Assembly (NCBI RefSeq): GCF_005222225.1
Contig: NZ_CP036536.1
Span: 2,132,001 to 2,196,000, forward strand
Direction: 5' to 3'
DNA length: 64,000 bases
DNA from: Salinimonas lutimaris
GTDB taxonomy: Bacteria > Pseudomonadota > Gammaproteobacteria > Enterobacterales > Alteromonadaceae
Shown: piece after piece, positions 10,391-27,857 of the stretch
Layout of the letters: every line of letters begins with the position of its first letter
Numbering within the stretch: position 1 is the stretch's first letter
Notes under the pieces: generated by a model
Databases searched by the model: none
Seen by the model: the letters and a program-made list of their open reading frames with translations, nothing else
Told to the model about the DNA's origin: nothing
Translations under genes and position numbers: made by a program

Positions 10391-10459
10391 AATATTAATT
10401 CCCTTGTGTTATCAGGGGTATGACTAAAACGCCACAAGACTCAAGTGAGTTAGATCGTG

Positions 10460-10786: not shown

Positions 10787-10974
10787 GCTCTGTATCTCCC
10801 TGTGGCGGTATTATTCAACGTAGTGTTATAAAAAATGACCTAAAACACGACAACTGTATATTTATACAGCCTCCGGTAAAAACAGCATTTATTGTGCTGT
10901 CGGTAACAGCATTAACCCTCCATAGGGCTTACATGAACATCGCTTGCATGCCTATGCGCAGCGGCGGGTAAAGG

Positions 10975-11301
10975 TTAGCACAGGTTGTCATTCAGGCTGT
11001 TGTACCATTTTTTATAGGGCGTGTTTTTGGCCAGATACCGGTTAAAGTCTTTCTGGTTATCGCTCCACCACACCGGCCCGCGCTCACCCAACGCTATTTT
11101 TGCTTTGTTGACCTGTTCCCGGGCCGCTTTCAGGAGTGCTTCGTCATCATCGGCCTTGGCCTGCTTAACCGCACGCCGGGCATCCATCAGATTTTTAACG
11201 TAGGTATTGCGCTCGGCTTCGCTTAAATTCGGATTGGTTGCACGCCATAGCTTGCCCTTAACCACAAAATACCGTCCGTCAGGGGTTACCGGATACTTCA
11301 T
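10975..11301 (-). CDS. Conserved hypothetical protein
   Basis: The 108-residue soluble basic protein begins MKYPVTPDGRYFVVKGKLWRA and contains ARRAVKQAKADDDEALLKAA and a W-rich PVWWSDNQKDFNRY segment. I recognise this as a widespread but uncharacterised proteobacterial family. The middle part (about 35-75) is a charged helical hairpin. GGAGCGGC lies upstream of the start. No function can be assigned. Confidence 0.75.
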   Translation of the reverse strand: MKYPVTPDGRYFVVKGKLWRATNPNLSEAERNTYVKNLMDARRAVKQAKADDDEALLKAAREQVNKAKIALGERGPVWWSDNQKDFNRYLAKNTPYKKWYNSLNDNLC

Positions 11302-11339
11302 TGCCGCTCCTGCATGTAATCTAAATGCTTAGATACGGC

Positions 11340-11956
11340 TTAAATGGCAGATTGCCCAGTATTAAAGATCACCAGATACAACGAATAGATGAACAGCCAC
11401 AGGATCTGGCAACCGTAACTCAGGCGCTGATAAAGCCCGGGGCGAGATTTTTTCTTTAACGCTGTTGCTAACTGCCAAGAAAAATACAGACATCCCATAA
11501 TACTCAATGCAGACATCAGTCTGAGCATCGCGGGGTAAAAGTCAGAAAAAGAGACAGCAGCCGGTGCAATGATAAAGGACAGAAGCATAACCAGGTGTGC
11601 ACCAGACTCGCGGAGGTTGGTGTTTTGGTATAGGGATCGGCGTCCATCGGAAAATATCCACATACCCAGGTGCACACACCGTGCACAATAATCATAGCGC
11701 CTATGCACAAGGTTGGAAGGTGATCATTGAACGTGAATACCACATAGCAACCAAACAGAACAAACAGTATCCCCAGAGGATAGTTATTAATGGCAGGTGA
11801 CAGCTTCTGTGTAGGGCAGCCAGACGCGCCCAACTCACTGCAAAACTGTTTGCTATGGCTGTATCCTGGATAAAACAAAGAGGCAATATAGATCCCCGTC
11901 ACTAACCAGATACAGGCAAGCAGCCCTGAATAAGCAATAAAATCTAACATAGTCAT
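11340..11956 (-). pseudogene. DUF998-family membrane protein, frameshifted
   Basis: The upstream part (from ATG 11956) has four hydrophobic helices and the DUF998 mark CGYFPMDADPYTKTPT, then runs into a frame without similarity. The neighbouring frame picks up with ESGAHLVMLLSFIIAPAA and supplies the remaining helices up to 11340. Adding one A to the AAAA run (T-run 11623-11626 on the plus strand) gives DPYTKNTNLRESGAHLVM in one reading frame of about 205 codons, the usual length. It is either a true frameshift or a base-call error. DUF998 proteins are polytopic membrane proteins of unknown function. Confidence 0.78.
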
Positions 11957-12040
11957 TCTTCCTGAATCTGACTAAAACGTCCTGTTGCTAATGTTACAGG
12001 TACTAATGTTTCTAGTACTAGCCCTGTTTATCCGAGTGCT

Positions 12041-12265
12041 TCAGCCTGGATATAATGAGGCTGGCAAGCGAAAAAACACCAGTCCAAGGCAACACACGCC
12101 AATCAGTGCGCACGGTGCGGCAACAATCAGCATTTGCTTACTCCAGGCAAACACAGCCAGTACCGTGCAGACCACACCCAGTGAAAGCTCAATAAGAAAC
12201 CTCTCCCAGTCAAGGGTGTACCCTGGCTGAATGGGTTTTAACAAGAAGTTGATGCGTGCTGACAC
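12041..12265 (-). CDS. Small membrane protein
   Basis: It starts at GTG 12265 with AGGAGAGG just upstream, giving 74 residues (VSARINFLLKPIQPGYTLDW...). Two hydrophobic helices follow (about 28-45 and 48-66). A longer form would overlap the lipoprotein gene upstream and is not credible. I do not recognise a family. The proteins at 12041-12584 are both small and envelope-directed. Confidence 0.5.
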   Translation of the reverse strand: MSARINFLLKPIQPGYTLDWERFLIELSLGVVCTVLAVFAWSKQMLIVAAPCALIGVCCLGLVFFRLPASLYPG

Positions 12266-12287
12266 CGGCCTCTCCTGCAAAATATGG

Positions 12288-12584
12288 CTATGAGTACTCA
12301 GATGTCGGCTTTTCAGCGCCACAAACCAGTGTTTCCTCGCCAAGGTGATAAACATTGTTTATGGCAACATACGTACCAGACACCACACCGGATATAGGTA
12401 ACAGAACCAGACCGCTGACAGAATAAAAGGTGTTGGTATCCTCGAAACCATTGATGATCTTCAGCGTTTTACGATCTGAGGATATTTCGCATTTATTCAC
12501 TTTTGCCGTATCGGTTTGTGGCACAACAATACAGCCGGTAAGCACGGGCACTACCCAAAGCAGAGAAAACAGATACTTCACCAT
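12288..12584 (-). CDS. Small lipoprotein
   Basis: The 98-residue protein has a signal peptide ending in a lipobox (VVPVLTGC, with Cys18 as the acylated residue). The mature part contains a hydrophobic turn (YSVSGLVLLPISGVVSGTYVA) and a second Cys near residue 88, possibly paired with the Cys at about 32. I recognise no family. It is likely anchored in the outer or inner membrane facing the periplasm. It reads toward the small membrane protein, 22 bases apart. Confidence 0.7.
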   Translation of the reverse strand: MVKYLFSLLWVVPVLTGCIVVPQTDTAKVNKCEISSDRKTLKIINGFEDTNTFYSVSGLVLLPISGVVSGTYVAINNVYHLGEETLVCGAEKPTSEYS

Positions 12585-12907
12585 TAAGTCCTTTTATTGT
12601 TAAACATCAGCTAATGCTTTTGTGCGCATCATCCAGCCTGGGGCTCTGGTTTTAAATCGGTGCAAGGCAGAGCCTCCTGACACGTGCAGATAAAAACGCT
12701 ATGAACAATCTTTGGTGGTATTTACCCAGCCTCGTACTGTTATAACCACGTCAGCGTTTGTTTATTTTTACACCAAAACAGCGATAAAAACATCCTGACA
12801 GAAAAACAAAGCACAATAAGCTGTGAAGGCCACAGGCAACATGCAGAACAAGAAGTACAAAGAAAACAGATGAAAAGTGCCGCCGCATGATCCGGCAAAG
12901 CCCAGGG
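12585..12907. other. Intergenic region, nothing recognised
   Basis: About 320 bases. A reverse frame at 12751-13011 is cysteine- and histidine-rich, overlaps the kinase-like gene and has no ribosome-binding site; it looks spurious. No hairpin of note. Confidence 0.4.
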
Positions 12908-13396
12908 CTATAATGACGGGGTATTTGACGTAAGCCGGCGTTTTTCGCCGGCAAACTTATCAAACAACGCCTCGTGAGCCGCTTTACTGAATGTATCGGT
13001 GCGATATTCATACTGGCTAATCCAGTCGATCAACATCGCTAAATTAGCATCCTGGGCTTCTTTAGATGAATACTTGTGCGGCTCCCACGGTCTGGCTCTG
13101 GCATTAGCAATACAAGCCTGAACCGGCAGGCACAGGTAAATGACCCTGGTGGCGTAGCCACAGGCGTATTCAAGCAAATCAGAGTAACACCCTTCAATAA
13201 CCCAGTCAGTGTGGCTAAGGACAAATTCGTCCATTGCCTGCCTCGATTCTTCAACAGAGCGACGCACCGGAGGCGAAACCGGCTGCCAGGCCAGCGTATC
13301 CAAATCCAGATGCGCCAGAGATTGCTGCTCAGATAACCGGTTTGCCAGGGTAGATTTACCCGCACCAGAGTTACCAAAAATCACAATTTTTGTCAT
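12908..13396 (-). CDS. P-loop kinase-like protein (adenylate/shikimate-kinase fold)
   Basis: The 162-residue protein has Walker A GNSGAGKST at residues 8-16 directly after a hydrophobic strand. LDLDTLAW follows at the position of the substrate-binding acidic residue, WVIEGCYSD in the middle, and R-rich lid-like segments (ANARARPWEPHKY). This is the FlaR/AAA_17-like group of small NTPases, often annotated as adenylate-kinase-related; the substrate is unknown. The gene stands alone, in a region with several broken genes, but itself appears intact. Confidence 0.8.
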   Translation of the reverse strand: MTKIVIFGNSGAGKSTLANRLSEQQSLAHLDLDTLAWQPVSPPVRRSVEESRQAMDEFVLSHTDWVIEGCYSDLLEYACGYATRVIYLCLPVQACIANARARPWEPHKYSSKEAQDANLAMLIDWISQYEYRTDTFSKAAHEALFDKFAGEKRRLTSNTPSL

Positions 13397-13451
13397 CGCC
13401 CCTTCCGTTTTTTGGTGCCGGCTACTAACCGGAAATTGCCATTACCCTTGT

Positions 13452-13730
13452 TCAGCTATCAGATAAACCAAATTCGCTTCTTGGGATTGACCCAGGCCCG
13501 ATTAAGCTCATCACGCCTTCTTCCTGTATAGTCTGCTTCACCTCTGACAGCGCTTCTTCAGCGGTGGTAAACAAATCGTCCCATATAGTGGAGTTATTAA
13601 ACTCATCTACCACCTCAAGCATCCAGTCCGGTTCGCCTTTCATCCGGTATATTTCAACCTGTACGGTTTTTCCGGCACTTGAGATGGCTTGTGATAGTTC
13701 TGAAAATTCCAACTGTGGTTCGTCAAGCAT
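13452..13730 (-). CDS. Hypothetical small acidic protein
   Basis: Chosen start: ATG 13730 (MLDEPQLEFSELSQAI), with AGG upstream, giving 92 residues. The longer frame from 13853 adds a cysteine-rich leader with no support. The pattern VQVEIYRMKGEPDWMLEVVDE followed by a helix (TAEEALSEVKQTI) recalls small immunity-like or DUF proteins that accompany peptide toxins, but I do not recognise it. No toxin gene is adjacent. Confidence 0.5.
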   Translation of the reverse strand: MLDEPQLEFSELSQAISSAGKTVQVEIYRMKGEPDWMLEVVDEFNNSTIWDDLFTTAEEALSEVKQTIQEEGVMSLIGPGSIPRSEFGLSDS

Positions 13731-14909: not shown

Positions 14910-16118
14910 ATGCATCAAAAGCTTGCCTATGTGTTTATCGGCTTGATACTAAGCATCAGCTTTAATGCAACCGCTAAAGTCCGAGGCGAAGCTATGGTGA
15001 CAACCGTAACTTCAAAAATATTGAGTGAGTCGCGGGAACTGCTCATCCACTTACCCAATAATTATTCGCGCTACAAAGACACCACTTACCCTGTTTTATA
15101 TTTATTGGACGGCCAGCGCAACTTTGCGCATACCGTAGGCACACTAGACCTACTCAATCAGTCGGGTATGGCCCAAGAAATGATTGTTGTAGGCATCACA
15201 AACACTGAACGTACGCGAGATTTCACACCTACCTATGATGAAAGCTACAACGAATGGGGAATATCAGGTGGAGCAGACCACTTTTTAGACTTTCTGGAAA
15301 AAGAGCTAAAACCTTATGTAACTTCAAACTATCGAACCAACAACTACGCAATACTTGCCGGGCACTCGTTAAGCGCGTTGTTCACCGTCTATACCCTTCA
15401 TGAAAGGCCCGATATGTTTCAAGCATATTTCGCTTTTAGCCCTAGCTTGTGGTGGCATGAAGAAGTGATATTTCCAGAAGCAAAAGAGTTTTTTAAATCA
15501 GACAGTGACCTGAATAAATACCTTTATGTGAATATGGGTAGCGAAGATGGAACAATGCTTAGCGCATACGAACATTACTCTGAGCTGCTGAACAGTAGCA
15601 CACGAAAAGGGTTTACGTTTGATATCGAATTAGATACGTCTGAAAGCCATAATACTACAGCGCTTGCAGGTATGAGCCTTGCCCTTCAAAAGCATATTAA
15701 TTCGCTGCGGCCTTCAGGCAAGGTTATCCAGGGTGGTCTCCCTGCGGTAGAGCAATACTACGAAGATCTTTCTGAAAAGTACGGGTTTCACGCCAAACCA
15801 GAATATAAAGCAGTAAATCACGCTGGCTATGCAGCACTGAATAAAAAAGACTTTGAGTCGGCAATTTCGATTTTTAAGAAGAATGTTGCTAGCTTCCCAA
15901 ACAAGTCTGATGCATACGACAGCCTGGCAGATGGCTATGAAGCTAAAGGCGATTTGGCCATGGCGCTTAAAATGAGAAAGAAAGCACTAGCGGTAAGCTA
16001 TGAAGAAAATGTGGAAAATAATGCTTATAAAACGCGGCTGAAAAATTTAGATAAAAAATCGATAAAGACGAGACAAAGTAAGGCGCCAAAGAACCTGTTA
16101 CTTGTTGTTGAGATTTAA
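14910..16118 (+). CDS. Secreted alpha/beta-hydrolase (esterase, Fes/IroE type) with C-terminal TPR
   Basis: The 402-residue protein has a signal peptide (about 1-22, ending NATA). The esterase domain has DGQRNFAH and the nucleophile elbow LAGHSLSALFTVY (Ser153), with a candidate catalytic His in LDTSESHNTTALAG. The C-terminal third (about 275-360) holds TPR-like helices (AGYAALNKKDFESAISIFKKN, DSLADGYEAKGDLAMAL). It resembles siderophore-esterase-like proteins, exported to the periplasm. AAGGAA precedes the ATG. Base composition is visibly more A+T-rich than the core. A diverged paralogue lies at 51976-53142, where the nucleophile is lost. Confidence 0.85.
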   Translation: MHQKLAYVFIGLILSISFNATAKVRGEAMVTTVTSKILSESRELLIHLPNNYSRYKDTTYPVLYLLDGQRNFAHTVGTLDLLNQSGMAQEMIVVGITNTERTRDFTPTYDESYNEWGISGGADHFLDFLEKELKPYVTSNYRTNNYAILAGHSLSALFTVYTLHERPDMFQAYFAFSPSLWWHEEVIFPEAKEFFKSDSDLNKYLYVNMGSEDGTMLSAYEHYSELLNSSTRKGFTFDIELDTSESHNTTALAGMSLALQKHINSLRPSGKVIQGGLPAVEQYYEDLSEKYGFHAKPEYKAVNHAGYAALNKKDFESAISIFKKNVASFPNKSDAYDSLADGYEAKGDLAMALKMRKKALAVSYEENVENNAYKTRLKNLDKKSIKTRQSKAPKNLLLVVEI

Positions 16119-17588: not shown

Positions 17589-19211
17589 TTGTTAACCACT
17601 ACATTTTTTGCCGACCGAAATTGGAATTGGAAATCAGATAAAGATAAACCCCTCTCGGGTATTATCACTTCCCCTGAATTCGATTTTTATGACAAAAACT
17701 ACACCTGTTTACTTCCCAAAGCCGTATGGGAAAAAGTTCATTTACGGGAAATCGAAACGAATGCCAGCTTGAGCGTAACTGTTCGAGACCTCCGCGAAGA
17801 GGAAGAGGCGGAGTTCGAATTTGAAGTGATTTCAATTGACTTCGAACCACCTGAGGAAAAATGGCGAACTCTGGTCACGGATTTAATCAAAAACAACAGA
17901 AACCCAAAGCAAGTATTTGGACATATTCATCTATCTAGCAAAGGCGACCCTGTTATCAAATGTGCCGCGAGCATATGGCTTAATGATATCGATTTCCACA
18001 TCAGTGAAAGCGATTCTTCATCTATCGGTATTCACGCACTTGCAAATTACAATTCTGACAAAGATTACCCTTTCTCGATATACGCGATTGTAGGAGAGTA
18101 CAGCGAGAACGACACAAAATTTGCTTGTTTTTTTAACAAGATTAATGTGCGATTCGGGGCATTAGAGTTACACAACGCCTGTGATACTGAGCAGATAAAA
18201 GTGTTAAGTAAATTGCTTAACAAAGCAAAAATGCGCTTCGGTAAAACAACAAATGAGTGGTTGGTAATCCCTCTAGTTTACTACCTTACACGCAAAAAAA
18301 CGGGCGGTAACAGTAAACTCGGGCTTGACTGGGATTACATTAATAATGCCATCACGCGAGGTAGTTTCGTAACTCAAGAATTCGATACAACAGCGTCAAT
18401 TGAAGCCTCATGGTTAAGGATGAATCCCACTCACCTTGAGTTTCGAGTCGCTCACACAGAGTTGATGCTTCATGGCATACGGCGTTTTGATACTGAAAGA
18501 GCAATCGAATTGAGCTTGATAGATGTCAGTCAATTAGCAAATACTTCATCAATAAAAGCGCATAATCTCTGGTTTAACTTCGATAATAAGTGGCGCATTA
18601 AGCATATTGATTTTGAAAAACTTGCGCTTGATGAACTCGATGGAAAAACGCTGGATGGCAAAGTCTTGTTTGATTGGACTCCTTACTATGTGGCCCATGA
18701 TTTAGATGAAGACCAATGGCGTCGTCTTGTGCCAGCAATATTCACTCACTGCTGGGTAGCTGTCCCTGTTGAAGGTATTGGCGATATCGTTGTACAAGTC
18801 AGCCCAGCGCTTTTAAAAAATCACCGACGAATTCCCGCAAACACAGATGTGCGGATCAGACTCACAATTGATACTGAGCTGCCATTGCAAATAAATTCGA
18901 AACACACTGCTTTGATTACTCGCTGTGATCATATCGATATTGACTTAGACATCCTTGCTCCTCATGACATTTCGCGTTGGCGATTAGTCATTCACAGTGC
19001 AACTAAGTACACAGCAAAGAGTACCCCAAAATGGAAAATTTCGTTTCGCGCCCCTTCAAACCCCGCCATAACGGTAAAAGACTTTGAGCCGTTTGCCAAT
19101 GCGATGTCAGCACTAGACGCGATCAAACCTGATAATAAATTTTGTACCGTTATAGCTTCCAAAATAAATAACACTTTATACGTAAAACACATCGAATCCA
19201 TAGAGTTGTAA
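17589..19211 (+). CDS. Operon gene 1: large protein of unknown function
   Basis: The 540-residue protein starts at TTG 17589 with GGAG eleven bases upstream; the earlier ATG is followed by a stop. There is no signal peptide or membrane segment. The sequence is strand-rich and acidic, with a helix-loop core around 200-260 (SKLLNKAKMRFGKT, EWLVIPLVYYLTRK) and a C-terminal strand-rich domain (VRIRLTIDTELPLQINSKH, SRWRLVIHSATKYTAK). I recognise no family. The stop codon lies four bases before the helicase gene, so the two are translationally coupled. By position it could be the specificity or assembly subunit, but this is conjecture. Its A+T-rich codon use matches the rest of the operon. Confidence 0.8.
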   Translation: MLTTTFFADRNWNWKSDKDKPLSGIITSPEFDFYDKNYTCLLPKAVWEKVHLREIETNASLSVTVRDLREEEEAEFEFEVISIDFEPPEEKWRTLVTDLIKNNRNPKQVFGHIHLSSKGDPVIKCAASIWLNDIDFHISESDSSSIGIHALANYNSDKDYPFSIYAIVGEYSENDTKFACFFNKINVRFGALELHNACDTEQIKVLSKLLNKAKMRFGKTTNEWLVIPLVYYLTRKKTGGNSKLGLDWDYINNAITRGSFVTQEFDTTASIEASWLRMNPTHLEFRVAHTELMLHGIRRFDTERAIELSLIDVSQLANTSSIKAHNLWFNFDNKWRIKHIDFEKLALDELDGKTLDGKVLFDWTPYYVAHDLDEDQWRRLVPAIFTHCWVAVPVEGIGDIVVQVSPALLKNHRRIPANTDVRIRLTIDTELPLQINSKHTALITRCDHIDIDLDILAPHDISRWRLVIHSATKYTAKSTPKWKISFRAPSNPAITVKDFEPFANAMSALDAIKPDNKFCTVIASKINNTLYVKHIESIEL

Positions 19212-19215
19212 CCGC

Positions 19216-22200
19216 ATGAAAAAAGCACTGTCTCTAAATTACAATTTACTTAACGGGCATCCTTTTGGCCAATTAAGCTCGCCGCTTCTCAAAGAGAACG
19301 ATTCTCTTATTCGAGAGTTTGACGATTGGCTAGCAGATTTTGATCGCCTACAAAGTGTGAAAGGGTTTGAAACAAACAATGAGGATTTAATCAAATCGTT
19401 AAACAACTTAAAGCAGTCTAAAGACAATGCAGACAAAAACGAAAAGGCTGAAAATAAAACCAAAGCCCTCGATACTGATAGGTTCGTTCTAGCGATTGAT
19501 ATCAAGCCTGAATTTAATAAAAACACTATTACGGTGATGACAATTCCCGTAAAAATACGCAACGTATCTGGCCAATTAAACAGATTTATCTTTTTTCCAG
19601 ACCATCAGAGTATCCCTACCATTAACCCAGATCTACTTGAAGTAGACGGCAAAATCCCTGTGCGTTGCATTGGTAGTGCTGAGCAAATCGATCGCTTTGA
19701 TTTTTCAACATTTCGCACAGACTCTGATGACTTGCAAGCGTGGTATAAAACAGCAGACGATTTGTTGAAAAGAGTCTCTAGTCTCACTATCGATAACATT
19801 GAAACCCATAAAGGGCTGCAACTTGAAAATCCCGATGTAGTGATAACGCTACGGCGCATACAATCAAACGATGCGGCTAATCGCAATATCATTAATTTGT
19901 ATGATGAAATTCTTACTAGTAGTGACGATGTGTTGCAACAAACCTCTCTAGCCCATGCTGACGTTGCTTATGTCGAAAATGAATTGCCTGGTGGGATCAA
20001 GTGGTTATCTGACGACTACCTGTTAACTATAACTGAACAACGTCAAAAGCCGTTTCTGGCACACATGGATGAATGCAAAGGCGAAGACACTCAGGATTAT
20101 ACCCATAGAGAACTATTCGCGCTGGACAATACCCAACGCGGCGTGGCCAGTGTCGCAGCATATATGCGCACCGGTGATGTGCTTGCAGTTAATGGCCCGC
20201 CGGGTTCGGGAAAAACCGCGATGCTCAAAGCAGTGATAAGCCATCAATATGTTGAAGCGGCATTAGCACAAGCCTCATGCCCTATTGTTGTCGGGGTTGG
20301 TGGTACTAATCAATCAGTAACGAATATCGTTAATGCCTTTCCCGGCGTTCTTTACAAAGGTAACGGGAAACCCCTCTATCATATGAGACGTTGGATTTCA
20401 GGGCCTGATAATTATGGTACTTATTTTCCGTCACTTGCGGCAAAAGAAAGCATGCCTGACGGTGCAGTTCTTGGAGAGATTGATAAGAATAATAAAGGTG
20501 GTGTGGTAAGGTGGAGCGATGCACTTTCAAAACTGAATGATCCCACTCAGCTCGATAGTCTGATTAAAGAATACCTTACTCATGCACAAGTACATTTTGG
20601 CGAATCATTCACCACAGTTGACGACGTTGTTAGCAAATTGCATAGCACACTAACTGAACTTGCGACGACCGTTGAAAGCCTTTATCGCAGTTTAATCAGG
20701 GCTTTTGACGAAAATTTTGCCATTCCGCCTCAAGAACATGCAGACTTTGCGCAATATTTCGATAACAATACTTTTAACCCACAAGGTGCCAAGTTAATAG
20801 AAATGCTTTATGAGCTTGCGCAAGGTGGCCTCGAAAGAAAGCATGAAATATATAGTGACGTTTGCCGTGAATACATTAGAGACAATCAGCTAGAAGATGA
20901 TCCACAAGCGCTCGCTAGAAATGACATTCAACTAACCAACATAGCGAAGATCATTATTGCCGATCGTGCTGTGGATTTGCTTGTGCGCTCAGAGCTTTTT
21001 CATTTTGCAGCCCGCTACTGGGAAGGACGATATCTTGCATCATGTGATAGCCAATTACTCATCTATGCATCACCATCCAATTTAGAATTGGGCCTCAGAA
21101 GAATGTGTATGTTGACCCCTATTCTGGTCTCCACGGTCCAATCAGCACCCAAACTGTTTGCATACGCAAAGCCCCCGGGATTGTCTGGGACACCCTACTT
21201 ACTCGGAAAAGCCGACCTTCTTATTATTGATGAGGCAGGGCAAGCCGATATTCGTACTACACTCCCTCTACTTGGATTATCCCGTAAGACTATTGCTGTA
21301 GGTGATATTGCGCAAATTCCCCCTGTTATTACCGACGCCTCGCCGATCATTGAGCAAGGTCTTTATCACACGCTGGGGATGGGGGCCAACAAGGCGCATA
21401 CCCATAAATGCTTTGTGCATGCGTTTAAAAACAAATTACTCCCTAGTCTCAGTGGCAGCATCTTGCATGTATTACGGGAAATTTCATTCTATAACCATCA
21501 AGAAAAAGGTATGTCACTTCGCGGTCACTATCGATGTCAGGAGACACTTAGCCAGTTTTGTAATGAACTAGTCTATGACAATAAAATTTTTATTATACCG
21601 CCTTTGTTCAAAGAGAAAGGTCCCTATCCACCCTTATCTTGGGTATCCAGCGCCCATAAAACGCAGAAAGTGGGCACGTCCCACAAAAACAAGCGGGAAG
21701 CACTGGATATAGTTAACTGGATTATTGAACAGTGGCCGCAAATATATGACCACTATAACACCACCCCTAACGAGCCAGCAAAAAACATTAATGATCTCAT
21801 TGGGATCATCAGTCCCTACAAAGCGCAGAGTTTGGAATTCATAGGTCGTACTGAGAATGACCTAAATGGAATGGGAACTAAACGAGGTCTTTTGCATACC
21901 AAGTTAATAGATGCGTTTGCTGGAACGCGTTACGCTATTAGCAAAAATGACATTGATAAGATGAAAGTCGGAACCGTCAACGCTTTACAAGGTGCAGAAA
22001 AACCCATCATTTTATTCAGTGGCACTAAAAGTGTTCAACATGGCGGTGATATTCATTACCGCTCTGACACCTACATCTTAAATGTTGCTGTATCGCGTGC
22101 AAAAGAGTGCTTCATCGCGTTTCTCTGCGAAAAAACATTTGGTATCCCAACTAACCGTGAAGCGATAGCCCCGCCGCGCGATCCAAATTCTGATTCTGTG

Positions 22201-23262
22201 GGATACCTTGGTTATTACATCGGTAAACGTGGACAACGCTTATACCCTAGAAGTGTGGTGATCATTGAATCTGATAATAAAATAGAAGCACTTCAACGGC
22301 ATTTAGGCAACCGTTATGTCGTGGTCAGCACGAAAGGTAAACTATTTAACTTAGGCATGAACGACGAACATGCCGTCTCAATCAAGGATGGACTGTTCCC
22401 ACAATATCAATTTCTAATCAGAAAGTCTGGTAAACGCCATACAAGCGACAACGGCAAAATCGCACGACAAGCGGTTGACGATATCTTAAATGCTTGCAGT
22501 GGCGCTGACATTGATGAAATTATTTTGGCTACAGATGATGATTTTGTCGGAGAACACATTGCTTGGCACTTGCGGGCTATTTTCAACCACCACCAACCAC
22601 AAAACCTATCTAAACTCCATCGAGTAAGGTTGCGCGGATTAACCAAGCAATCCATAACAAGAGCCTTCGGATTGGATAACTCGCCGTATGACAATAAGAA
22701 AAACGTCAATTTAAACGTTGCTTCTGCGGAAATGGTGCGTGAAATACTTGATTTGTTATTGGCAAGAAAACTGACGTCATTGGCACAAAAGATGAAAGCT
22801 GAAAAAGCATCTGACGATGAAACGCTAGCACTCGATAAGCATTTGATAGCTGATTGCCAACAGGATTCAGTTCATGGCATGGGCCGAGTTAAAGCAGCGA
22901 TACTATCGCTTGTTTATGACCATTTGCGTGCGCAACTACAGTCTATTTCCCACCCCACGGGCGCACCTGTGAACGTCAAAATCGGCAACAAAACGATAAA
23001 GGGTCGGTTGATACAACAAAAGAACGTTAAAAATATCAACACGCTAAGTAAAACCCTTAAGGCGGTCATGGAGAATGGCCAAGCGATGATGACGCCAGGC
23101 GCCATTTGGAAAGTCACGAAAGCAATATTTGATGAACGTAGTGTGGCAGCACCGGACGCATCTACCCTAAAAGTGATGAGAGAAAACGCCTTGAAAGCGG
23201 ATATACCCCCCACTGATACTTATCGTGCATTAACGAGCTTATACGAAGGAAAGAATTTATGA
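19216..23262 (+). CDS. Operon gene 2: UPF1/DNA2-like SF1 helicase fused to a type IA topoisomerase TOPRIM region
   Basis: 1348 residues. The N-terminal ~270 residues are unrecognised. The SF1 helicase follows: Walker A GPPGSGKT (327-334), LLIIDEAGQAD (D672/E673), VGDIAQIPP, a HYRCQE motif-IV-like box, GIISPYKAQ, TVNALQGAEK and LNVAVSRAKE. From ~1012 a topoisomerase IA region begins. VVIIESDNK gives the catalytic Glu1018, LATDDDFVGEHIAWHL the DxD (1107/1109), and LHRVRLRGLTKQSITRAF and HGMGRVKAA (1223-1226) match LHRVRF.EIT and SAGRVQ. The protein ends ..TDTYRALTSLYEGKNL, like the helix just before the catalytic YITYMRTDS strand, and then stops. The catalytic tyrosine is therefore absent from this chain. 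The gene overlaps the next by ATGA. Confidence 0.9.
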   Translation: MKKALSLNYNLLNGHPFGQLSSPLLKENDSLIREFDDWLADFDRLQSVKGFETNNEDLIKSLNNLKQSKDNADKNEKAENKTKALDTDRFVLAIDIKPEFNKNTITVMTIPVKIRNVSGQLNRFIFFPDHQSIPTINPDLLEVDGKIPVRCIGSAEQIDRFDFSTFRTDSDDLQAWYKTADDLLKRVSSLTIDNIETHKGLQLENPDVVITLRRIQSNDAANRNIINLYDEILTSSDDVLQQTSLAHADVAYVENELPGGIKWLSDDYLLTITEQRQKPFLAHMDECKGEDTQDYTHRELFALDNTQRGVASVAAYMRTGDVLAVNGPPGSGKTAMLKAVISHQYVEAALAQASCPIVVGVGGTNQSVTNIVNAFPGVLYKGNGKPLYHMRRWISGPDNYGTYFPSLAAKESMPDGAVLGEIDKNNKGGVVRWSDALSKLNDPTQLDSLIKEYLTHAQVHFGESFTTVDDVVSKLHSTLTELATTVESLYRSLIRAFDENFAIPPQEHADFAQYFDNNTFNPQGAKLIEMLYELAQGGLERKHEIYSDVCREYIRDNQLEDDPQALARNDIQLTNIAKIIIADRAVDLLVRSELFHFAARYWEGRYLASCDSQLLIYASPSNLELGLRRMCMLTPILVSTVQSAPKLFAYAKPPGLSGTPYLLGKADLLIIDEAGQADIRTTLPLLGLSRKTIAVGDIAQIPPVITDASPIIEQGLYHTLGMGANKAHTHKCFVHAFKNKLLPSLSGSILHVLREISFYNHQEKGMSLRGHYRCQETLSQFCNELVYDNKIFIIPPLFKEKGPYPPLSWVSSAHKTQKVGTSHKNKREALDIVNWIIEQWPQIYDHYNTTPNEPAKNINDLIGIISPYKAQSLEFIGRTENDLNGMGTKRGLLHTKLIDAFAGTRYAISKNDIDKMKVGTVNALQGAEKPIILFSGTKSVQHGGDIHYRSDTYILNVAVSRAKECFIAFLCEKTFGIPTNREAIAPPRDPNSDSVGYLGYYIGKRGQRLYPRSVVIIESDNKIEALQRHLGNRYVVVSTKGKLFNLGMNDEHAVSIKDGLFPQYQFLIRKSGKRHTSDNGKIARQAVDDILNACSGADIDEIILATDDDFVGEHIAWHLRAIFNHHQPQNLSKLHRVRLRGLTKQSITRAFGLDNSPYDNKKNVNLNVASAEMVREILDLLLARKLTSLAQKMKAEKASDDETLALDKHLIADCQQDSVHGMGRVKAAILSLVYDHLRAQLQSISHPTGAPVNVKIGNKTIKGRLIQQKNVKNINTLSKTLKAVMENGQAMMTPGAIWKVTKAIFDERSVAAPDASTLKVMRENALKADIPPTDTYRALTSLYEGKNL

Positions 23263-24020
23263 CTCAGTCAAACAGCGCCCATGAGCCTATCAAAATTCTT
23301 GTCGATGACGAAGAACTGGCAGTCGTGTATAAAGCTTTGTCCGATAAAGCCCAAAACAGCAAAAATGAATCCTATAGTGTAATGCTACAAACCCTCGACG
23401 TACTCAGTGCATTTGCCAAAGCCGATAGCGCAGGAGAAGCCCTCCTTCACGAAGCGCACATCATCTTGGAGTCCAACAAGTCCGACTGCCATATTGTCTT
23501 TGAGACCCATGAATTAGAAGAAGCTGGATGGACAGAGTATTTGCAAATCGATAACCCCGGCGATATGGAAAATACATTGAATAAAGCCGACTTGGCGAAA
23601 CTAAAGCAAGGCGAGTTTGATATTGAAGTAGAGCTTCCTGATGTATTGCATAACCTAACGATTGACGAACTGTTATCGAAAATGGACGATTTTAAGATTG
23701 GCCGCCCTTCGACATATGCCGATATTCTTGATGATGTCACAAACAAGCACGAGCTGCTTGATATAACTGATGGCAATGTACGTTTAACCCAGCTTGGTCT
23801 GCGTGCGGCTGAATATTTTACATCGTTTAACTTAGAAGAATTCTCAGCCCTATTTTGTCATGAATTCAGCACTGACCTAGAAGGTATAAGCGAAGGTATC
23901 ATGTCGCCTACAGACATGTTACTAAAATACCTCCCGTTAGTTGCCAGTAGAGAGGAAATTGAAGCGTTTAAAAACAACGCTTGGCGAACCTTGTCTGACA
24001 TTGATATCGACGTAAAGTGA
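23259..24020 (+). CDS. Operon gene 3: C-terminal segment of a split type IA topoisomerase
   Basis: The 253-residue protein resumes where gene 2 stops in topoisomerase order. AHEPIKI (residues 7-13) corresponds to AHEAIRPT, which follows the tyrosine segment in TopA. A helical arm comes next. EEAGWTEYLQ (88-96) is like the GW/GFL gate strands. LTIDELLSKMDDFKIGRPST (quoted in part; GRPSTYA at 148-154) is the highly conserved type IA GIGRPSTYA motif, followed by a wHTH-like end (LLDITDGNVRLTQLGLRAAEYF, in part) equal to the L.PT.LG..V helix. The only missing part is the ~40-50 residues around the catalytic Tyr. The start codon overlaps the stop of gene 2. No zinc-finger tail is present. Confidence 0.85.
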   Translation: MTQSNSAHEPIKILVDDEELAVVYKALSDKAQNSKNESYSVMLQTLDVLSAFAKADSAGEALLHEAHIILESNKSDCHIVFETHELEEAGWTEYLQIDNPGDMENTLNKADLAKLKQGEFDIEVELPDVLHNLTIDELLSKMDDFKIGRPSTYADILDDVTNKHELLDITDGNVRLTQLGLRAAEYFTSFNLEEFSALFCHEFSTDLEGISEGIMSPTDMLLKYLPLVASREEIEAFKNNAWRTLSDIDIDVK

Positions 24021-24027
24021 GGCCAGC

Positions 24028-25350
24028 GTGAACATTACTGGATACCCGCGCACAGGCTCTAAAAAAGACAACCAAAGAAACGCAAACCACCTCACAAAAC
24101 GAATCAATAAGCTACTATCAAAAGGCGTACTGACTGAAAGCGAGTTAGAAGAACTTATCCAGCTGCTTGGCGGTGTGATATGGAGCCACGGCGCACTGAG
24201 TTACCGACTCAAGGCACTAAGGGCTGCTCATGAGCTTCGTGACAAAATCCTTAAGGCGCTAAAGAAACATCATAACGAGCAATTAAGTGATGAGAACCAA
24301 TACTCCAGTGCTGGCGGTCTCTCAGCCACAAGAATTAGGGAGTTTGAACAACAACTACAGGTTGCTACACTACTAATCGGGCCAAGCAATGATTCACGCT
24401 CGGTTGTAGAGAAACTCAATCAACCCATCGCTGACAGTCCTGACTTTACTCCCTATAGCTTTCAGGAAATCACGCGTACAGACCACACTGTCTATTACTG
24501 CGACATAGATGGTGACCTGCTTCGCGTTTTAGACCTTGAACACAAAACTCAACGGCAGCTTGAGAAGGATGAAGCACTGCTCGCTGAGGTATTGCCTCCA
24601 AAGAAAACGAGTTACATCGATGATGACGAACGTGCCAGATTAGAGGCAGAAGTGGACAATTTAAATACATTATCTGATGACACTCGCCAAACTATTTTAA
24701 ACGGTTGGCAACAAGGCAATATTACGCATATTGATCAAGAGTTTCCGGAACTTGAAAACTTCAATAAATGTGTAAGTATACTCGACGACTTAGGCGTCAT
24801 GTTCGGTACCTATGAAGAACTCAAGAGTGGTGAATTCAAAACCATGTTTAATAAGAATGGCTATCAAGCTGAGCATTACCCGCCACTCTCTACTCTTTTA
24901 GCACGTGCAGTTGCGCAGGGCGAAGCTCGCGGAGCCGTGCCGCGTATCGACGGCATTGTTAATTACACGGAAAAACAAGCGTTATGCTTTGCGGTCTTCG
25001 ATGGACAATCCAAAGGGTTTGAGCATTACAACGTGACGCGTGCTGCTGAGGCTTTCATGAAATCGTTGGCTGAGAAAGGTGAAAAAGCGACTCTGGGGCA
25101 ATGGCTAGATAAAGCCGTCGATTATTATGCGAAAGAGTTCACAAAGCGCCTAGAAAGAGAGGCTGTAGAGCCCTTTGATAAGCCTGCATTAGCTAAGCAG
25201 GGACGCAAGGCTGCAGTAGCGATTAGAAATGTTACACGTGCCCATTTCATTGCATTGGATGGAAAAGACGTTCTTGATCTCCCACTGGAAAATGGAAAGT
25301 ATCGCAACAAGAAACCACAAACGTTTGGAGGCAACGTTAATGAACTTTAA
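24028..25350 (+). CDS. Operon gene 4: unknown protein beginning with a topoisomerase-like tyrosine motif
   Basis: 440 residues from GTG 24028 (GAGG upstream). The first residues are MNITGYPRTGSKKD. ITGYPRTGS strongly recalls the catalytic ITYPRTDS of type IA topoisomerases, the element absent from genes 2 and 3. Tyr6 would be the nucleophile and Arg8 the conserved Arg. Residues 20-110 are helical (KRINKLLSKGVLTESELEEL, LKALRAAHELRDKIL). The middle (~150-240) is acidic, and the C-terminal half is helical (NVTRAAEAFMKSLAEKGEKA, DKAVDYYAKEFTKRLERE). No other family is recognised. The spacing (7 bases from gene 3, 11-base overlap with gene 5) implies a stoichiometric partner. The catalytic role is inferred. 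Confidence 0.8.
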   Translation: MNITGYPRTGSKKDNQRNANHLTKRINKLLSKGVLTESELEELIQLLGGVIWSHGALSYRLKALRAAHELRDKILKALKKHHNEQLSDENQYSSAGGLSATRIREFEQQLQVATLLIGPSNDSRSVVEKLNQPIADSPDFTPYSFQEITRTDHTVYYCDIDGDLLRVLDLEHKTQRQLEKDEALLAEVLPPKKTSYIDDDERARLEAEVDNLNTLSDDTRQTILNGWQQGNITHIDQEFPELENFNKCVSILDDLGVMFGTYEELKSGEFKTMFNKNGYQAEHYPPLSTLLARAVAQGEARGAVPRIDGIVNYTEKQALCFAVFDGQSKGFEHYNVTRAAEAFMKSLAEKGEKATLGQWLDKAVDYYAKEFTKRLEREAVEPFDKPALAKQGRKAAVAIRNVTRAHFIALDGKDVLDLPLENGKYRNKKPQTFGGNVNEL

Positions 25351-26308
25351 ACAGGAAGTAACACTTTTAAGAGCACATCCAGACAACCGACGCGTGTTGG
25401 CGATCACAGTGAATACTCCAGCCGATGGCACATTGGCTTCAAGCAGTATTTATGAAGGCGTCATCGAAGAAATCAATAAGAGTGCAGACTGCTTTTGGGT
25501 TAATAGTACTATATTGGATATCGGCGTAACGTCATCAAACCATTATTGGATAGGTGACAATGAGGGTCACATATATACTACGAAGACATTGAGTAAGGTG
25601 CCACTGGACAATGAACAAGATGTAGAGTTTGGATTTGATCCAAATCGCCTCCCGACAGTTCAGCAATACCGTTTTTCGACTTTCCCTATCAATGCAATCT
25701 GGTGCGATGAAACACTAACCATCATTGCCGACGAAGCCGGGACGTTTTGGCACATCCAAGACGGTGAATTCACTAGCCATAGCGCATGCAAAGACCCATT
25801 AGCTTTTTTTGGTCAGCAAAACGATATTTATGTTTATGGTCAAGGGCGGCAACTTTGGCACTTTAATGGCTCGATTTGGTCTCAAATCGAATTACCTGAC
25901 ATGGGATTAGATTTTTGGCAAATATCTGGGGCAACGCTCGTTAATGAAAACACGTATTTGGCTGTGACAGACTACGGGTTTGTGTTTAAAGGCAATGCTC
26001 AAGAAGGCTTTAACCAAATTAAGGCTCCAAAAAAATACTACTCCGGGATAACTACCATTGATGATAGGGTGTTTGTATCTATCCCCGAAGAGGGTGTGTA
26101 TGAAGTGAAAAACATAACCGCGACATGGGAAATAGGACTGATTCATAATTCGCGCATCCCCCTCTCACTTCAGGCCATAGGGGAACCTTCTGCGCTTTAC
26201 ACGACGAACGCTTTTGAAGCACAAAAAGGTTACTTTGTTGTGCTCATTCCGGGCGATAAATTTGCTGAAAAGAAACGTGTATTTGCCTGGGAGATCGGCA
26301 ATGATTAG
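25340..26308 (+). CDS. Operon gene 5: beta-propeller protein
   Basis: The start is ATG 25340, eight bases after GGAGG and overlapping gene 4 by 11 bases; a longer frame from 25229 lies wholly in gene 4. 322 residues. Blades are visible as repeated strand sets with aromatic closing motifs: NHYWIGDNEGHIYTT, NAIWCDETLTIIADEAGTFW, NDIYVYGQGRQLWHFNGSIW, TYLAVTDYGFVFKGN and DRVFVSIPEEGVYEVK. This predicts a five- to seven-bladed WD40/kelch-like propeller, a protein-interaction platform. No signal peptide, so it is cytosolic. Beta-propellers occur as recognition subunits in several bacterial conflict clusters (for example MoxR-vWA ternary systems), but the MoxR and vWA partners are absent here. Confidence 0.8.
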   Translation: MNFKQEVTLLRAHPDNRRVLAITVNTPADGTLASSSIYEGVIEEINKSADCFWVNSTILDIGVTSSNHYWIGDNEGHIYTTKTLSKVPLDNEQDVEFGFDPNRLPTVQQYRFSTFPINAIWCDETLTIIADEAGTFWHIQDGEFTSHSACKDPLAFFGQQNDIYVYGQGRQLWHFNGSIWSQIELPDMGLDFWQISGATLVNENTYLAVTDYGFVFKGNAQEGFNQIKAPKKYYSGITTIDDRVFVSIPEEGVYEVKNITATWEIGLIHNSRIPLSLQAIGEPSALYTTNAFEAQKGYFVVLIPGDKFAEKKRVFAWEIGND

Positions 26309-26891
26309 ATCAAATATAGACCTACAGGTAGCAGAGGTTACCGAATTTTCGCATCATCTCAGACAACAAGACGACAGACAATTAGTCATTTTCTACGAAC
26401 TAATCAGGAAAGTATTCGAAAACGACGCACTGACCAAACAGACTAGAGAGGTAATTTGCAGGCTAGTAATTTCACAGAGCTCACGCGACCGATTGGCCTC
26501 TCGCGGAGCCTTGTCATTTTATGTGCCCTTTGTCTTGCGTTGTTTCTTTATTTTGGGCGACTTTTCTAAACCTATGCTTGTAAAAATGCAATCTCTCTAT
26601 CCTCTGATTAGCGACATGAATATCATCGAAGTATTAGATTGCCACTTCTTTTTTCAGCAACTCTTCGGCTATCCAAAGAAGCTTCAACGTTTGCTTGATG
26701 AAGCAGACACAGCAGTGACTAACCAGACCGAATCAAATAAGAAGTATGTGAATGCATTTAAAGACGCTAATGCAGCCAATCTAGAAGCGCTGAGAAAAAC
26801 CCTTCTCCTACCTGTCACAGAGTTAAAAACAGTTTGGAAGGCACTGCCTTGGATTCAGTGGCAATTTTTTACCATGAAATCAATATTGTGA
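26301..26891 (+). CDS. Operon gene 6: helical protein of unknown function
   Basis: The start is ATG 26301, preceded by GGGAG and overlapping gene 5 by eight bases; a longer frame from 26214 lies inside gene 5. 196 residues, nearly all helical (AEVTEFSHHLRQQDDRQLVI, FFYELIRK-like heptads, ADTAVTNQTESNKKYVNAFK). It has a hydrophobic stretch (FYVPFVLRCFFILGDF, about 75-90) that is probably a buried helix and not a membrane anchor. I recognise no family. The coupling to the propeller gene suggests a direct partner. Confidence 0.75.
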   Translation: MIRSNIDLQVAEVTEFSHHLRQQDDRQLVIFYELIRKVFENDALTKQTREVICRLVISQSSRDRLASRGALSFYVPFVLRCFFILGDFSKPMLVKMQSLYPLISDMNIIEVLDCHFFFQQLFGYPKKLQRLLDEADTAVTNQTESNKKYVNAFKDANAANLEALRKTLLLPVTELKTVWKALPWIQWQFFTMKSIL

Positions 26892-26898
26892 GGATTCA

Positions 26899-27195
26899 AT
26901 GTTTGAAGAAAACTATAAGTGTTTAGTTTGCGGTCATATTGGCCTGCTAGATTTCGACTATGACACCACTCCCGATAAGACCTTTGCGACCTTCTCCGGA
27001 AGTATAAGTTGTACGTCATGTGAAACTACCATTGAGTGCACTGGTCAGCTAGATATTTATGAAGATCAACCCGTTAGTGATCCAATGGACTGGTTAATGG
27101 ACATTCAATACGACTGTGATTTTGACGTAATTTTTGTGAATATCAATGAAATACCGCAAATTGAGCCAGGTCCTCTCGACCACCTTTGTCGCTAA
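26899..27195 (+). CDS. Operon gene 7: small zinc-ribbon protein
   Basis: The 98-residue protein has two CxxC pairs (CLVCGH at 9-14 and CTSCE near 38-42) with a strand-rich spacer, a classical zinc ribbon. The C-terminal half is acidic (EDQPVSDPMDWLMD, DCDFDVIFVN). A GAGG box precedes ATG 26899, seven bases after gene 6. Topoisomerase IA enzymes commonly carry C-terminal zinc ribbons for single-stranded DNA binding. This separate ribbon could serve that role in the split enzyme, or it could be an adaptor or regulator; both are inference. It is the last gene of the operon. Confidence 0.75.
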   Translation: MFEENYKCLVCGHIGLLDFDYDTTPDKTFATFSGSISCTSCETTIECTGQLDIYEDQPVSDPMDWLMDIQYDCDFDVIFVNINEIPQIEPGPLDHLCR

Positions 27196-27429: not shown

Positions 27430-27857
27430 TTTCAAAATTTGATTTTCATCGCCTTTGCTTTTATCAGTCTGAACACAACTGCAAAGGGTTTCAAAACCCC
27501 GAATCAGCGGTTAACACCTTTATTATCAACGTAAAAACGGGTTAAGGTCAGCACATAATGCTTGCGTTTACTAGCAGCGTCGCTATTCAATATTTCGACT
27601 GAGAAGTAAAATTCCAACAGTACTCACGCGATGATTTTGCCAAGCTGGTCAACACTGGCAATCAGTCGGACGCCAAAATCGAAATTATCGATATGAAGAT
27701 AACTGGCAATGCGGCCAACGCAACGGTAGCATTATCGTGGAGTGAGCAAGGTGAAAATGGATACATCGATTATTTAAACCTCATATTCGGCGGTAGCAGT
27801 TGGCGCGTAAAGGCAAAGGTTCACTTTGCTTACATGCGTGGCATTGGCGTAGGTTAG
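27430..27857 (+). pseudogene. NTF2/SnoaL-like secreted protein, multiply frameshifted
   Basis: A signal-peptide-like start (NLIFIAFAFISLNTTAKGFK, then TPNQ) is followed in a second frame by AVNTFIINVKTG. A third frame runs from 27603 to 27857: SRDDFAKLVNTGNQSDAKIE, MKITGNAANATVALSW, YIDYLNLIFGGSSWRVKAKV. This is the NTF2-like pattern (ITGN.A.A.V.L......Y.DYL.L....G.W.I..K). At least two frame changes and a stop (27600) break it. It marks the right edge of the accessory island. About 230 bases between the operon's last stop (27195) and this remnant show nothing recognisable. Confidence 0.6.

What the first reader, a model, noticed from the sequence alone, without database searches (positions are those of the whole stretch)
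22255..24060. Type IA topoisomerase apparently split over three polypeptides, with the catalytic tyrosine moved to a different gene
Gene 2 carries the TOPRIM acids (Glu1018, Asp1107, Asp1109) and GRV motif and ends at LYEGKNL, the helix that in TopA precedes YITYMRTDS. Gene 3 starts with AHEPIKI, equal to the AHEAIRPT that follows the Tyr segment, and has GRPSTYA. Neither has the tyrosine strand. Gene 4 begins ITGYPRTGS, very close to the ITYPRTDS type IA active site. The precise excision, and the appearance of the missing motif at the start of the next protein, are hard to explain by chance. Differences (an extra Gly before Tyr, Asp to Gly after Thr) need testing.
Basis: partly seen in the sequence, partly recalled or inferred. 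Interest (0 to 1): 0.95.

Follow-up and report, generated by a model that had tools for sequence, protein, structure and literature searches.

The report
Topoisomerase whose tyrosine rides a toxin
A rare bacterial gene cluster appears to break a DNA-cutting enzyme, a type IA topoisomerase, into pieces, and the piece with the cutting amino acid sits at the tip of a separate protein that in several relatives ends in an exchangeable toxin-like nuclease; this may be a new way for bacteria to fight invading DNA.

Summary
Gene 2 is an SF1 helicase (nearest model: MkoC of Mokosh) fused to the TOPRIM half of a type IA topoisomerase. It stops at LYEG, just before the catalytic strand. Gene 3 resumes at the catalytic-histidine loop. 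Neither holds the tyrosine. Gene 4 starts MNITGYPRT.

Seven relatives were found: five bacterial genomes, one plasmid, one phage contig. In 8 of 8 the TOPRIM Glu/Lys/Asp/Asp, the loop His, and the Tyr and Arg of Y[PS]R are invariant. In 7 of 8 the Tyr chain is separate from both topoisomerase halves. In Azonexus it is fused to the second half, in canonical order. In G1173 both halves are one chain with the Tyr segment missing.

In 4 of 8 the Tyr chain ends in an HNH nuclease of toxin type with a SUKH/YrhA immunity-type gene behind it. That toxin part looks exchanged between loci; the Tyr segment does not.

Best explanation: a helicase-coupled, trans-complemented topoisomerase whose cleavage subunit carries a toxin, probably against foreign DNA. 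Activity, assembly, defence role and covalent toxin delivery are inferred. No complex model could be made, and the window's own toxin is unidentified.

The parts
17589..19211 (+). Gene 1, 540 aa (TTG start as listed; true start uncertain), unknown function; ends 4 nt before gene 2, so probably co-transcribed. No similarity to the gene upstream of gene 2 in Polaromonas (BLASTP E=0.078) or in L080 (E=0.91).
19216..23262 (+). Gene 2, 1348 aa: SF1 (AAA_11/AAA_12) helicase of the MkoC kind fused to the N-terminal (TOPRIM) half of a type IA topoisomerase; ends ...LYEGKNL.
   Evidence: Pfam and PADLOC; PDB profile match
22255..22587 (+). TOPRIM domain of gene 2 (aa 1014-1124); Glu1018 at 22267-22269, Asp1107 at 22534-22536, Asp1109 at 22540-22542; the third acid of DxDxE is Val1111 here.
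23239..23259 (+). LYEGKNL, C-terminal end of gene 2, where ordinary TopA runs on into the catalytic strand.
23259..24020 (+). Gene 3, 253 aa: C-terminal half of the topoisomerase, starting just before the AHE loop; the conserved His8 at 23280-23282; GRPSTYA further on; overlaps gene 2 by 4 nt (ATGA).
24028..25350 (+). Gene 4, 440 aa: Tyr chain. N-terminal MNITGYPRTGS with Tyr6 at 24043-24045 and Arg8 at 24049-24051; the rest is unidentified (no family match), by analogy with relatives perhaps an effector.
25340..26308 (+). Gene 5, 322 aa from the ATG at 25340 (GGAGG 8 nt upstream; overlaps gene 4 by 11 nt): candidate immunity gene by position only; no family match, only weak tblastn hits to Rhizobium plasmid proteins (best E=0.008).
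   Evidence: queried from one codon upstream
26301..26891 (+). Gene 6, 196 aa from the ATG at 26301, overlapping gene 5: unknown, second candidate immunity gene by position.
   Evidence: queried from one codon upstream
26899..27195 (+). Gene 7, 98 aa, weak zinc-ribbon similarity (Elf1-like, E=0.0054, below cut-off); last gene of the tightly packed row.

Best explanation
Genes 2, 3 and 4 together encode one type IA topoisomerase core on three polypeptides, coupled to an SF1 helicase. Gene 2 supplies the helicase, the TOPRIM domain and the first half of the clamp up to the helix before the catalytic strand. Gene 3 supplies the catalytic-histidine loop and the rest of the clamp. Gene 4 inserts its N-terminal strand (Ile-Thr-Gly-Tyr6-Pro-Arg8-Thr) into the gap and provides the nucleophile in trans. 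[Shown: the anatomy, the missing segment, residue conservation in eight loci. Inferred: assembly and catalysis.]

In the wider family the Tyr chain behaves as an exchangeable cartridge. In four of eight loci it carries an HNH nuclease of toxin type with a SUKH/YrhA immunity-type gene right behind it. [Shown: domain content, order, a similarity pattern that fits exchange. Inferred: that it is toxic, and, for the window, that gene 4's unidentified C-terminus plays the same part.]

The likeliest working: the helicase-topoisomerase engages single-stranded or replicating foreign DNA, the Tyr chain cleaves a strand and becomes joined to its 5' end, and so plants its toxin on that DNA, while the immunity protein protects the cell from unassembled toxin. 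[Inferred throughout; the defence role rests on MkoC kinship, one Gabija neighbour and carriage by a phage contig and a plasmid.]
For: (1) Invariant in 8 of 8 loci: TOPRIM Glu, Lys, Asp, Asp; Tyr and Arg of Y[PS]R at residues 6/8 or 7/9 of the Tyr chain; His of the loop. Glu, DxD, Arg and His have described roles in type IA catalysis (PMC6101483, passages); that of Lys is recalled. (2) The break is sharp in Topoisom_bac profile coordinates: Polaromonas gene 2 ends at 155 (weak match, E=0.088), the Azonexus second chain runs 157-383 (E=1.3e-6), the Myxococcales and L080 C-halves start at 211 and 214 (E=2.4e-22 and 4e-9). (3) L080: both halves in one chain, 23 residues between LYEG and the resumed match where the profile has about 58, Tyr segment on the next gene. 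(4) Tyr-x-R in the same frame after LYE: 33 of 33 ordinary TopA, 0 of 7 family. (5) Gene order varies (gene2-TopoC-Tyr in window, L079, L088; gene2-Tyr-immunity-TopoC in Polaromonas and Myxococcales), yet the Tyr segment always opens its chain. (6) Polaromonas against L079: toxin part 57% identical, but TopoC 21%, gene 2 30%, Tyr segment 32%; Polaromonas against Azonexus: Tyr segment 67%, TopoC 44%, gene 2 52%. So the Tyr segment diverges with the topoisomerase and the toxin part looks swapped. (7) The Polaromonas HNH part resembles an LXG toxin (E=3e-13); L088's Tyr-HNH chain is 52% identical to L079's; a YrhA/SUKH gene follows in 4 of 4. (8) Gabija GajA and GajB stand upstream in L080, one 382-aa gene away. 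(9) The host has its own complete topA elsewhere (835.7 bits).
Against: No activity, complex or structure is shown. AF2 on gene 4 failed (pLDDT 42.8); on the TOPRIM half it was fair only within TOPRIM (mean 50). The window's Tyr segment alone is not significantly similar to ordinary ones (E=0.19); the six separate Tyr segments known at the time together give E=0.039 and Azonexus 0.0013. The Polaromonas and Azonexus profile matches that define the break lie under Pfam's cut-off. The third TOPRIM acid is lost in the window (Val), Acidithiobacillus (Ala) and L080 (Met), and the residue after Thr varies. The window's gene 4 C-terminus and genes 5-6 have no known family, so toxin and immunity are analogies there; in Acidithiobacillus and L080 the C-terminal parts are unidentified too. 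Azonexus has no recognisable toxin, so the toxin is not essential to the machine. Unequal rates, not exchange, could also make the toxin parts look more alike. Family rows sit on very long tree branches. Eight loci are few.
Confidence: 0.6

Rival explanations
1. Safety catch: the Tyr strand docks into the topoisomerase clamp mainly to hold the toxin subunit in check. Little or no cleavage occurs; when the helicase meets foreign DNA the clamp opens and the toxin is released.
For: Loss of the third TOPRIM acid in 3 of the 7 rows; the toxin-bearing chain is the one that is separable; an immunity-type gene suggests that free toxin is dangerous to the cell.
Against: The residues needed for cleavage and rejoining are invariant in 8 of 8, including the Arg needed for rejoining (PMC6101483, passages), which mere docking would not require. 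Azonexus keeps the Tyr segment without a recognisable toxin.
Confidence: 0.2
2. Delivery pilot: the Tyr subunit, covalently bound to a 5' end, is carried with the strand into another cell by a conjugation machine and poisons recipients that lack immunity.
For: The Polaromonas copy lies on a plasmid typed conjugative; SUKH-type immunity is typical of polymorphic toxins (PMC3482391, passages), which serve mainly in conflicts between cells; an ORF that reads like a lytic transglycosylase lies upstream of the Acidithiobacillus gene 2 (L042:16187-16924, read only).
Against: The window lies in a single 4.1-Mb contig; L080 sits near Gabija; L088 is a phage contig. Secretion signals and transfer genes were not systematically looked for.
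Confidence: 0.07
3. Dead topoisomerase: the tyrosine was lost, the TOPRIM half works as a nuclease or clamp, and gene 4's YPRT is coincidence.
For: On its own gene 4 has no significant similarity to ordinary Tyr segments and no family match.
Against: Y[PS]R opens the Tyr chain in 8 of 8 against a background of 60 of 5276. Azonexus shows the same kind of N-terminus in frame with the topoisomerase C-half, and Polaromonas shares 42 of 63 residues of that segment.
Confidence: 0.05
4. Parasitic cassette: an HNH plus immunity element invaded the topoisomerase gene at the loop before the histidine and split it, as homing elements do.
For: Compared with Azonexus, the Polaromonas cassette sits exactly at VLKD/MHAHP.
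Against: The Tyr segment is fused in frame to the HNH part; the gene is split after LYEG even where no cassette exists (Azonexus), and the Tyr segment is separate with a C-terminus not recognised as HNH in the window, Acidithiobacillus and L080; gene order differs between loci.
Confidence: 0.05

Closest known systems
Mokosh type II (MkoC)
   Same: The helicase of gene 2 scores 433 bits (E=6.8e-130) against the PADLOC MkoC model; the five relatives scanned (of seven) score 468-560 bits.
   Different: A PLD-like domain is listed for Mokosh type II (PMC10952713, passages). Here a TOPRIM half-topoisomerase stands after the helicase and further genes follow; no PLD family among the Pfam matches of gene 2.
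Bacterial TopA / type IA topoisomerase
   Same: TOPRIM half and C-terminal half with the catalytic Glu, Asp, Asp, Lys, His; Tyr and Arg present in trans.
   Different: The nucleophile is on a different polypeptide from TOPRIM; no paper describing a toxin-bearing Tyr subunit turned up in the searches made.
Split type IA topoisomerase of Nanoarchaeum equitans (NeqTop3) and its split reverse gyrase
   Same: [quoted passage not shown] the split reverse gyrase only as a reference title there). A two-subunit reverse gyrase of Methanopyrus kandleri is recalled, from no call.
   Different: Two pieces, not three; no toxin or immunity gene is mentioned in the passages seen; where the break lies was not seen here.
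Reverse gyrase
   Same: Helicase and type IA topoisomerase joined in one machine; the TOPRIM profile also hits reverse gyrases (E about 1e-12).
   Different: Helicase here is SF1 (AAA_11/AAA_12), not the reverse-gyrase type; the topoisomerase is split.
Polymorphic toxin systems (HNH toxins with SUKH immunity)
   Same: Variable C-terminal part, exchange behind a fixed N-terminal segment, immunity-type gene directly behind (PMC3482391, passages).
   Different: The N-terminal carrier is a topoisomerase active-site strand, not a known trafficking domain.
Gabija
   Same: Helicase plus a TOPRIM protein in defence; a Gabija pair lies upstream of the L080 locus with one gene between.
   Different: Gabija's TOPRIM belongs to an OLD-family protein (PF20469); topoisomerase halves and Tyr subunit are not part of it.

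Membership tests
Type IA topoisomerase | TOPRIM Glu and DxD | tested here: met
   E1018, D1107, D1109 invariant in 8 of 8
Type IA topoisomerase | catalytic Tyr with Arg two residues on, in the same chain as TOPRIM | tested here: not met
   0 of 7 gene-2 chains examined against 33 of 33 ordinary TopA; Y and R are found in trans in 8 of 8
Type IA topoisomerase | histidine loop and C-terminal clamp half | tested here: met
   Topoisom_bac 252-409 in gene 3; His invariant in 8 of 8
Type IA topoisomerase | DNA cleavage, rejoining, relaxation | not testable with these tools
   needs biochemistry
Mokosh type II | MkoC-type SF1 helicase | tested here: met
   PDLC03924, 433 bits
Mokosh type II | PLD-like nuclease domain | tested here: not met
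   no PLD family among 15 Pfam matches of gene 2 at E up to 1; Toprim instead
Reverse gyrase | helicase fused to type IA topoisomerase | tested here: met
   gene 2
Reverse gyrase | reverse-gyrase model (TIGR01054) over its cut-off | tested here: not met
   31 bits against cut-off 471.7, topoisomerase part only; helicase is AAA_11/AAA_12
Polymorphic toxin system | variable C-terminal toxin with adjacent immunity gene, in the family | tested here: met
   toxin-type HNH plus YrhA/SUKH in 4 of 8 loci (Polaromonas, Myxococcales, L079, L088); toxicity itself untested
Polymorphic toxin system | same, in the window itself | tested here: inconclusive
   gene 4 C-terminus and genes 5-6 match no family
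Polymorphic toxin system | N-terminal trafficking domain | tested here: inconclusive
   no Pfam match over the gathering score in the window's gene 4; the N-terminus is the Tyr segment
Split type IA topoisomerase (NeqTop3 kind) | one topoisomerase core on separate polypeptides that assemble | tested here: inconclusive
   separate polypeptides shown; assembly not testable
Anti-phage defence system | protects cells from phage or plasmid | not testable with these tools
   only circumstantial: MkoC kinship, Gabija nearby, phage carriage

The most novel reading that the evidence does not exclude
A topoisomerase used as a conjugation device: the cleavage tyrosine sits at the tip of an interchangeable toxin, so every cleavage of foreign DNA covalently loads the toxin onto that DNA's 5' end. 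Defence by toxin-DNA adduct, with immunity genes guarding the host and with cartridges swapped between lineages.
Probability: 0.3. Interest if true: 0.97.

Novelty: categorically new. Interest (0 to 1): 0.9.

Why it matters
In the ordinary type IA enzymes compared here the nucleophile is in the same chain as the TOPRIM domain (33 of 33). A family in which evolution has cut out the nucleophile strand and put it on a separate partner, in several loci a swappable toxin-like one, would show that the active site can be assembled from three chains. It would give a ready-made split enzyme for mechanistic work and suggest a defence principle not met in the searches made here: covalent marking of invading DNA with a toxin. 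It also links Mokosh-like helicases, topoisomerases and polymorphic toxins in one operon, and makes a clean prediction, one Tyr6Phe change, that a single experiment can test.

Tried and rejected
Led nowhere: tblastn of gene 4 against plasmids and of its C-terminus at E up to 5 (two chance-level hits); gene 4 in 274 and 98 genomes (only itself); viral contigs with gene 4, with A1 and with the junction pattern; gene 5 against plasmids (weak Rhizobium hits, best E=0.008, not followed); gene 4 against PDB sequences (none) and the Polaromonas HNH part (weak HNH hits only, best E=0.039); AF2 of gene 4; promoter and terminator scans of the island (22 and 8 found, shuffles 26.8 and 12.3) and repeats (only short pairs). 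Gene 1 shows no similarity to the upstream gene in Polaromonas or L080.

Considered and rejected: (a) the Tyr of the LYPR motif at the helicase-TOPRIM junction as a substitute nucleophile: LYPR is present in 6 of 7 rows, but L079 has LNAR there, and L088 too (read). (b) Sequencing error or frameshift between genes 2 and 3: in the window, L079, L080 and L088 (4 of 8) there is no Tyr strand in the stretch between LYEG (LYES in L088) and the histidine loop, and in the other four the Tyr chain lies there under its own start, after extra gene-2 residues. (c) Gene 4 start misplaced: only 4 codons of open frame lie upstream. (d) L047 and L048, TOPRIM-only matches: single-chain TopA with Tyr, not family members. 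(e) 15 of 18 pattern hits are chance by reading their frames. (f) Of 11 viral loci only L088 was opened, because only its match ran past the helicase part; the other ten match query residues 2-157 at most.

Limits of the counts: one search listed 40 of 52 records and one search did not list all matches and scored at most 4 candidates a genome, so members can have been missed. Searches used E up to 1e-45, looser limits. One search's tree used seven family rows (L088 came later) and 33 ordinary TopA, those returned as best loci, not a random sample. Its strict motif count printed '3 of 33' because it required the motif in a narrow spelling and place; the looser Y.R[TSV] column, present in 33 of 33, is the one used. 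In one search the Myxococcales chain was taken from its second codon (shown as Y5; Y6).

Full report

RELATIVES. The family is rare in what was searched. From plasmids, one of the 40 records listed (52 matched) had helicase plus TOPRIM: Polaromonas JS666 plasmid 2 (L002); with L079 as query again only this record covered at least 80% of the query, of 95. Its junction motif, written as a DNA pattern, gave 18 genome stretches, of which 3 were real: Azonexus, Acidithiobacillus marinus, and a Myxococcales MAG. Their surroundings were fetched as L041-L043. A five-row profile found 2 more among 349 genomes of the Azonexus order: G1242 (L079) and G1173 (L080). It found no new one among 199 and 29 genomes. 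A two-row profile found none among 398, and a seven-row profile at E up to 1e-45 none among 247, 140 and 225, beyond the known locus included in each. A seven-row scan of IMG/VR gave 11 loci, one of which (L088) carries helicase plus TOPRIM and was opened. That makes eight loci with the window.

ANATOMY OF THE EIGHT. Window: gene2 - TopoC - Tyr+unknown - genes 5-7. L079 and L088: gene2 - TopoC - Tyr+HNH - YrhA, the same order. Polaromonas and Myxococcales: gene2 - Tyr+HNH - SUKH/YrhA - TopoC. Acidithiobacillus: gene2 - 155-aa gene - Tyr+unknown - TopoC. L080: gene2 and TopoC in a single 1607-aa chain without the Tyr segment - Tyr+unknown - 280-aa gene. Azonexus: gene2 - Tyr fused to TopoC, no recognisable toxin. 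In profile coordinates Polaromonas gene 2 ends at Topoisom_bac 155 (E=0.088, weak), the Azonexus second chain covers 157-383 (E=1.3e-6, under cut-off), and the Myxococcales and L080 C-halves begin at 211 and 214. A sequence search of the Azonexus second chain against the PDB aligns it to E. coli TopA from the histidine loop on (query 64-240, E=1.4e-5); the Tyr segment itself is not in that alignment. So the piece missing from the other second halves is the piece that Azonexus still has in place.

CONSERVATION. Invariant in 8 of 8: TOPRIM Glu, Lys, DxD; Tyr and Arg of Y[PS]R near the N-terminus of the Tyr chain; the loop His. In mycobacterial and E. coli enzymes Glu and DxD are critical and bind metal, the Arg is needed for rejoining, and the His stacks on the Tyr and may relay charge (PMC6101483, passages; PMC7587558, passages). 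The third acid is not conserved (window Val, Acidithiobacillus Ala, L080 Met, Polaromonas and Azonexus Asp, Myxococcales and L079 Glu). Controls: 33 of 33 ordinary TopA have Y.R[TSV] after LYE in the same frame, 0 of 7 family chains; 60 of 5276 start codons have Y.R within ten residues. Against: direct profile comparison of the Tyr segments is weak. Azonexus E=0.0013, the six other segments then known together 0.039, the window alone 0.19.

TOXIN CARTRIDGE. The Polaromonas HNH part resembles a Bacillus LXG toxin (E=3e-13) and is 57% identical to L079's and 35% to Myxococcales'; L088's whole Tyr-HNH chain is 52% identical to L079's. By Pfam only the Myxococcales HNH passes the cut-off; Polaromonas carries the record's annotation as HNH. 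A YrhA/SUKH gene follows in all four (annotation and SMI1_KNR4 E=7.8e-5 under cut-off for Polaromonas; NF038335 7e-18, 5.6e-14, 1.1e-14 for L079, Myxococcales, L088, the last two just under cut-off; L088 and L079 42% identical). SUKH proteins serve as immunity proteins over the widest range of polymorphic toxins (PMC3482391, passages). Polaromonas and L079 share 57% in the toxin part but 21% in TopoC, 30% in gene 2 and 32% in the Tyr segment, whereas Polaromonas and Azonexus share 67% in the Tyr segment, 44% in TopoC and 52% in gene 2. The simplest reading is that the Tyr segment travels with the topoisomerase and the toxin is exchanged behind it; unequal rates are the alternative. The window's own cartridge is an orphan: gene 4's C-terminus and genes 5-6 match no family, so calling it a toxin is an analogy.

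SETTING. In L080 a Gabija pair (GajA 553 bits, GajB 810 bits) stands upstream with one 382-aa gene of unknown kind between. L088 lies in a contig with terminase, endolysin and spanin. The Polaromonas plasmid is typed conjugative. The window's host has a complete topA elsewhere (835.7 bits), so the locus is not the housekeeping enzyme. A tree of the TOPRIM halves puts the seven then known as one group (100/99), but on very long branches with the program's warning.

MECHANISM. Most likely the three chains form one clamp and gene 4's strand completes the active site. Since the cleaving chain is the toxin-bearing chain in four relatives, cleavage would tie the toxin to the 5' end of the cut strand. 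Whether the complex rejoins strands or leaves the adduct cannot be told; the conserved Arg argues that rejoining was kept. Azonexus suggests that the enzyme can do without a toxin. A docking-only (safety catch) role is the main rival.

KNOWN OR NEW. Split type IA enzymes exist: NeqTop3 is a heterodimer from a split gene (PMC4200833, passages), and a two-subunit reverse gyrase in Methanopyrus is recalled. In the held library no paper was found that joins Mokosh or a type IA topoisomerase with a separated tyrosine, toxin or immunity gene (searches; listings, abstracts and passages only, subscription journals largely missing). I therefore rate it categorically new as an arrangement, with activity unproven.

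Noticed in passing
L080:1-3170 (G1173:C12): A Gabija pair (GajA, GajB) lies upstream of the split-topoisomerase locus with one 382-aa gene between.
   Followed up: yes
L088 (IMGVR_UViG_3300013023_000003, first 12.3 kb, reversed): A phage contig with terminase, endolysin, Rz-like spanin and an integrase fragment carries the whole system behind its lysis genes.
   Followed up: partly
L043:9012-13491: The Myxococcales helicase-TOPRIM gene is broken into two overlapping reading frames (10351-13491 and 9012-10508); real frameshift or assembly error not decided, left as is.
   Followed up: no
L047, L048: TopA-like proteins (L047 beside an ORF that reads like a conjugative ATPase) have HITYHRTDN and GHPAITPT, nearer to the family's AHP loop than chromosomal AHEAIRP; a possible source of the topoisomerase halves.
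   Followed up: partly
L042:11347-11814: A 155-aa gene of unknown kind stands between gene 2 and the Tyr gene in Acidithiobacillus marinus; no family match over cut-off.
   Followed up: partly
gene 2 of 6 of the 7 loci: A LYPR motif at the helicase-TOPRIM junction is strongly conserved (LNAR in L079 and L088); its role is unknown.
   Followed up: partly
window 15858-15874 and 27675-27691: A 17-nt inverted pair (88%) brackets the low-G+C island 11.8 kb apart; probably chance, but it lies at the island's edges.
   Followed up: no
L002:4921-6693: Upstream of the Polaromonas system stands a 590-aa protein with a cysteine-rich, transposase-like N-terminus (read only), near IS21 genes.
   Followed up: no
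window 17589-19211: Gene 1 (540 aa) is tightly linked to gene 2 but matches no Pfam or NCBIfam family and not the upstream genes of two relatives.
   Followed up: partly
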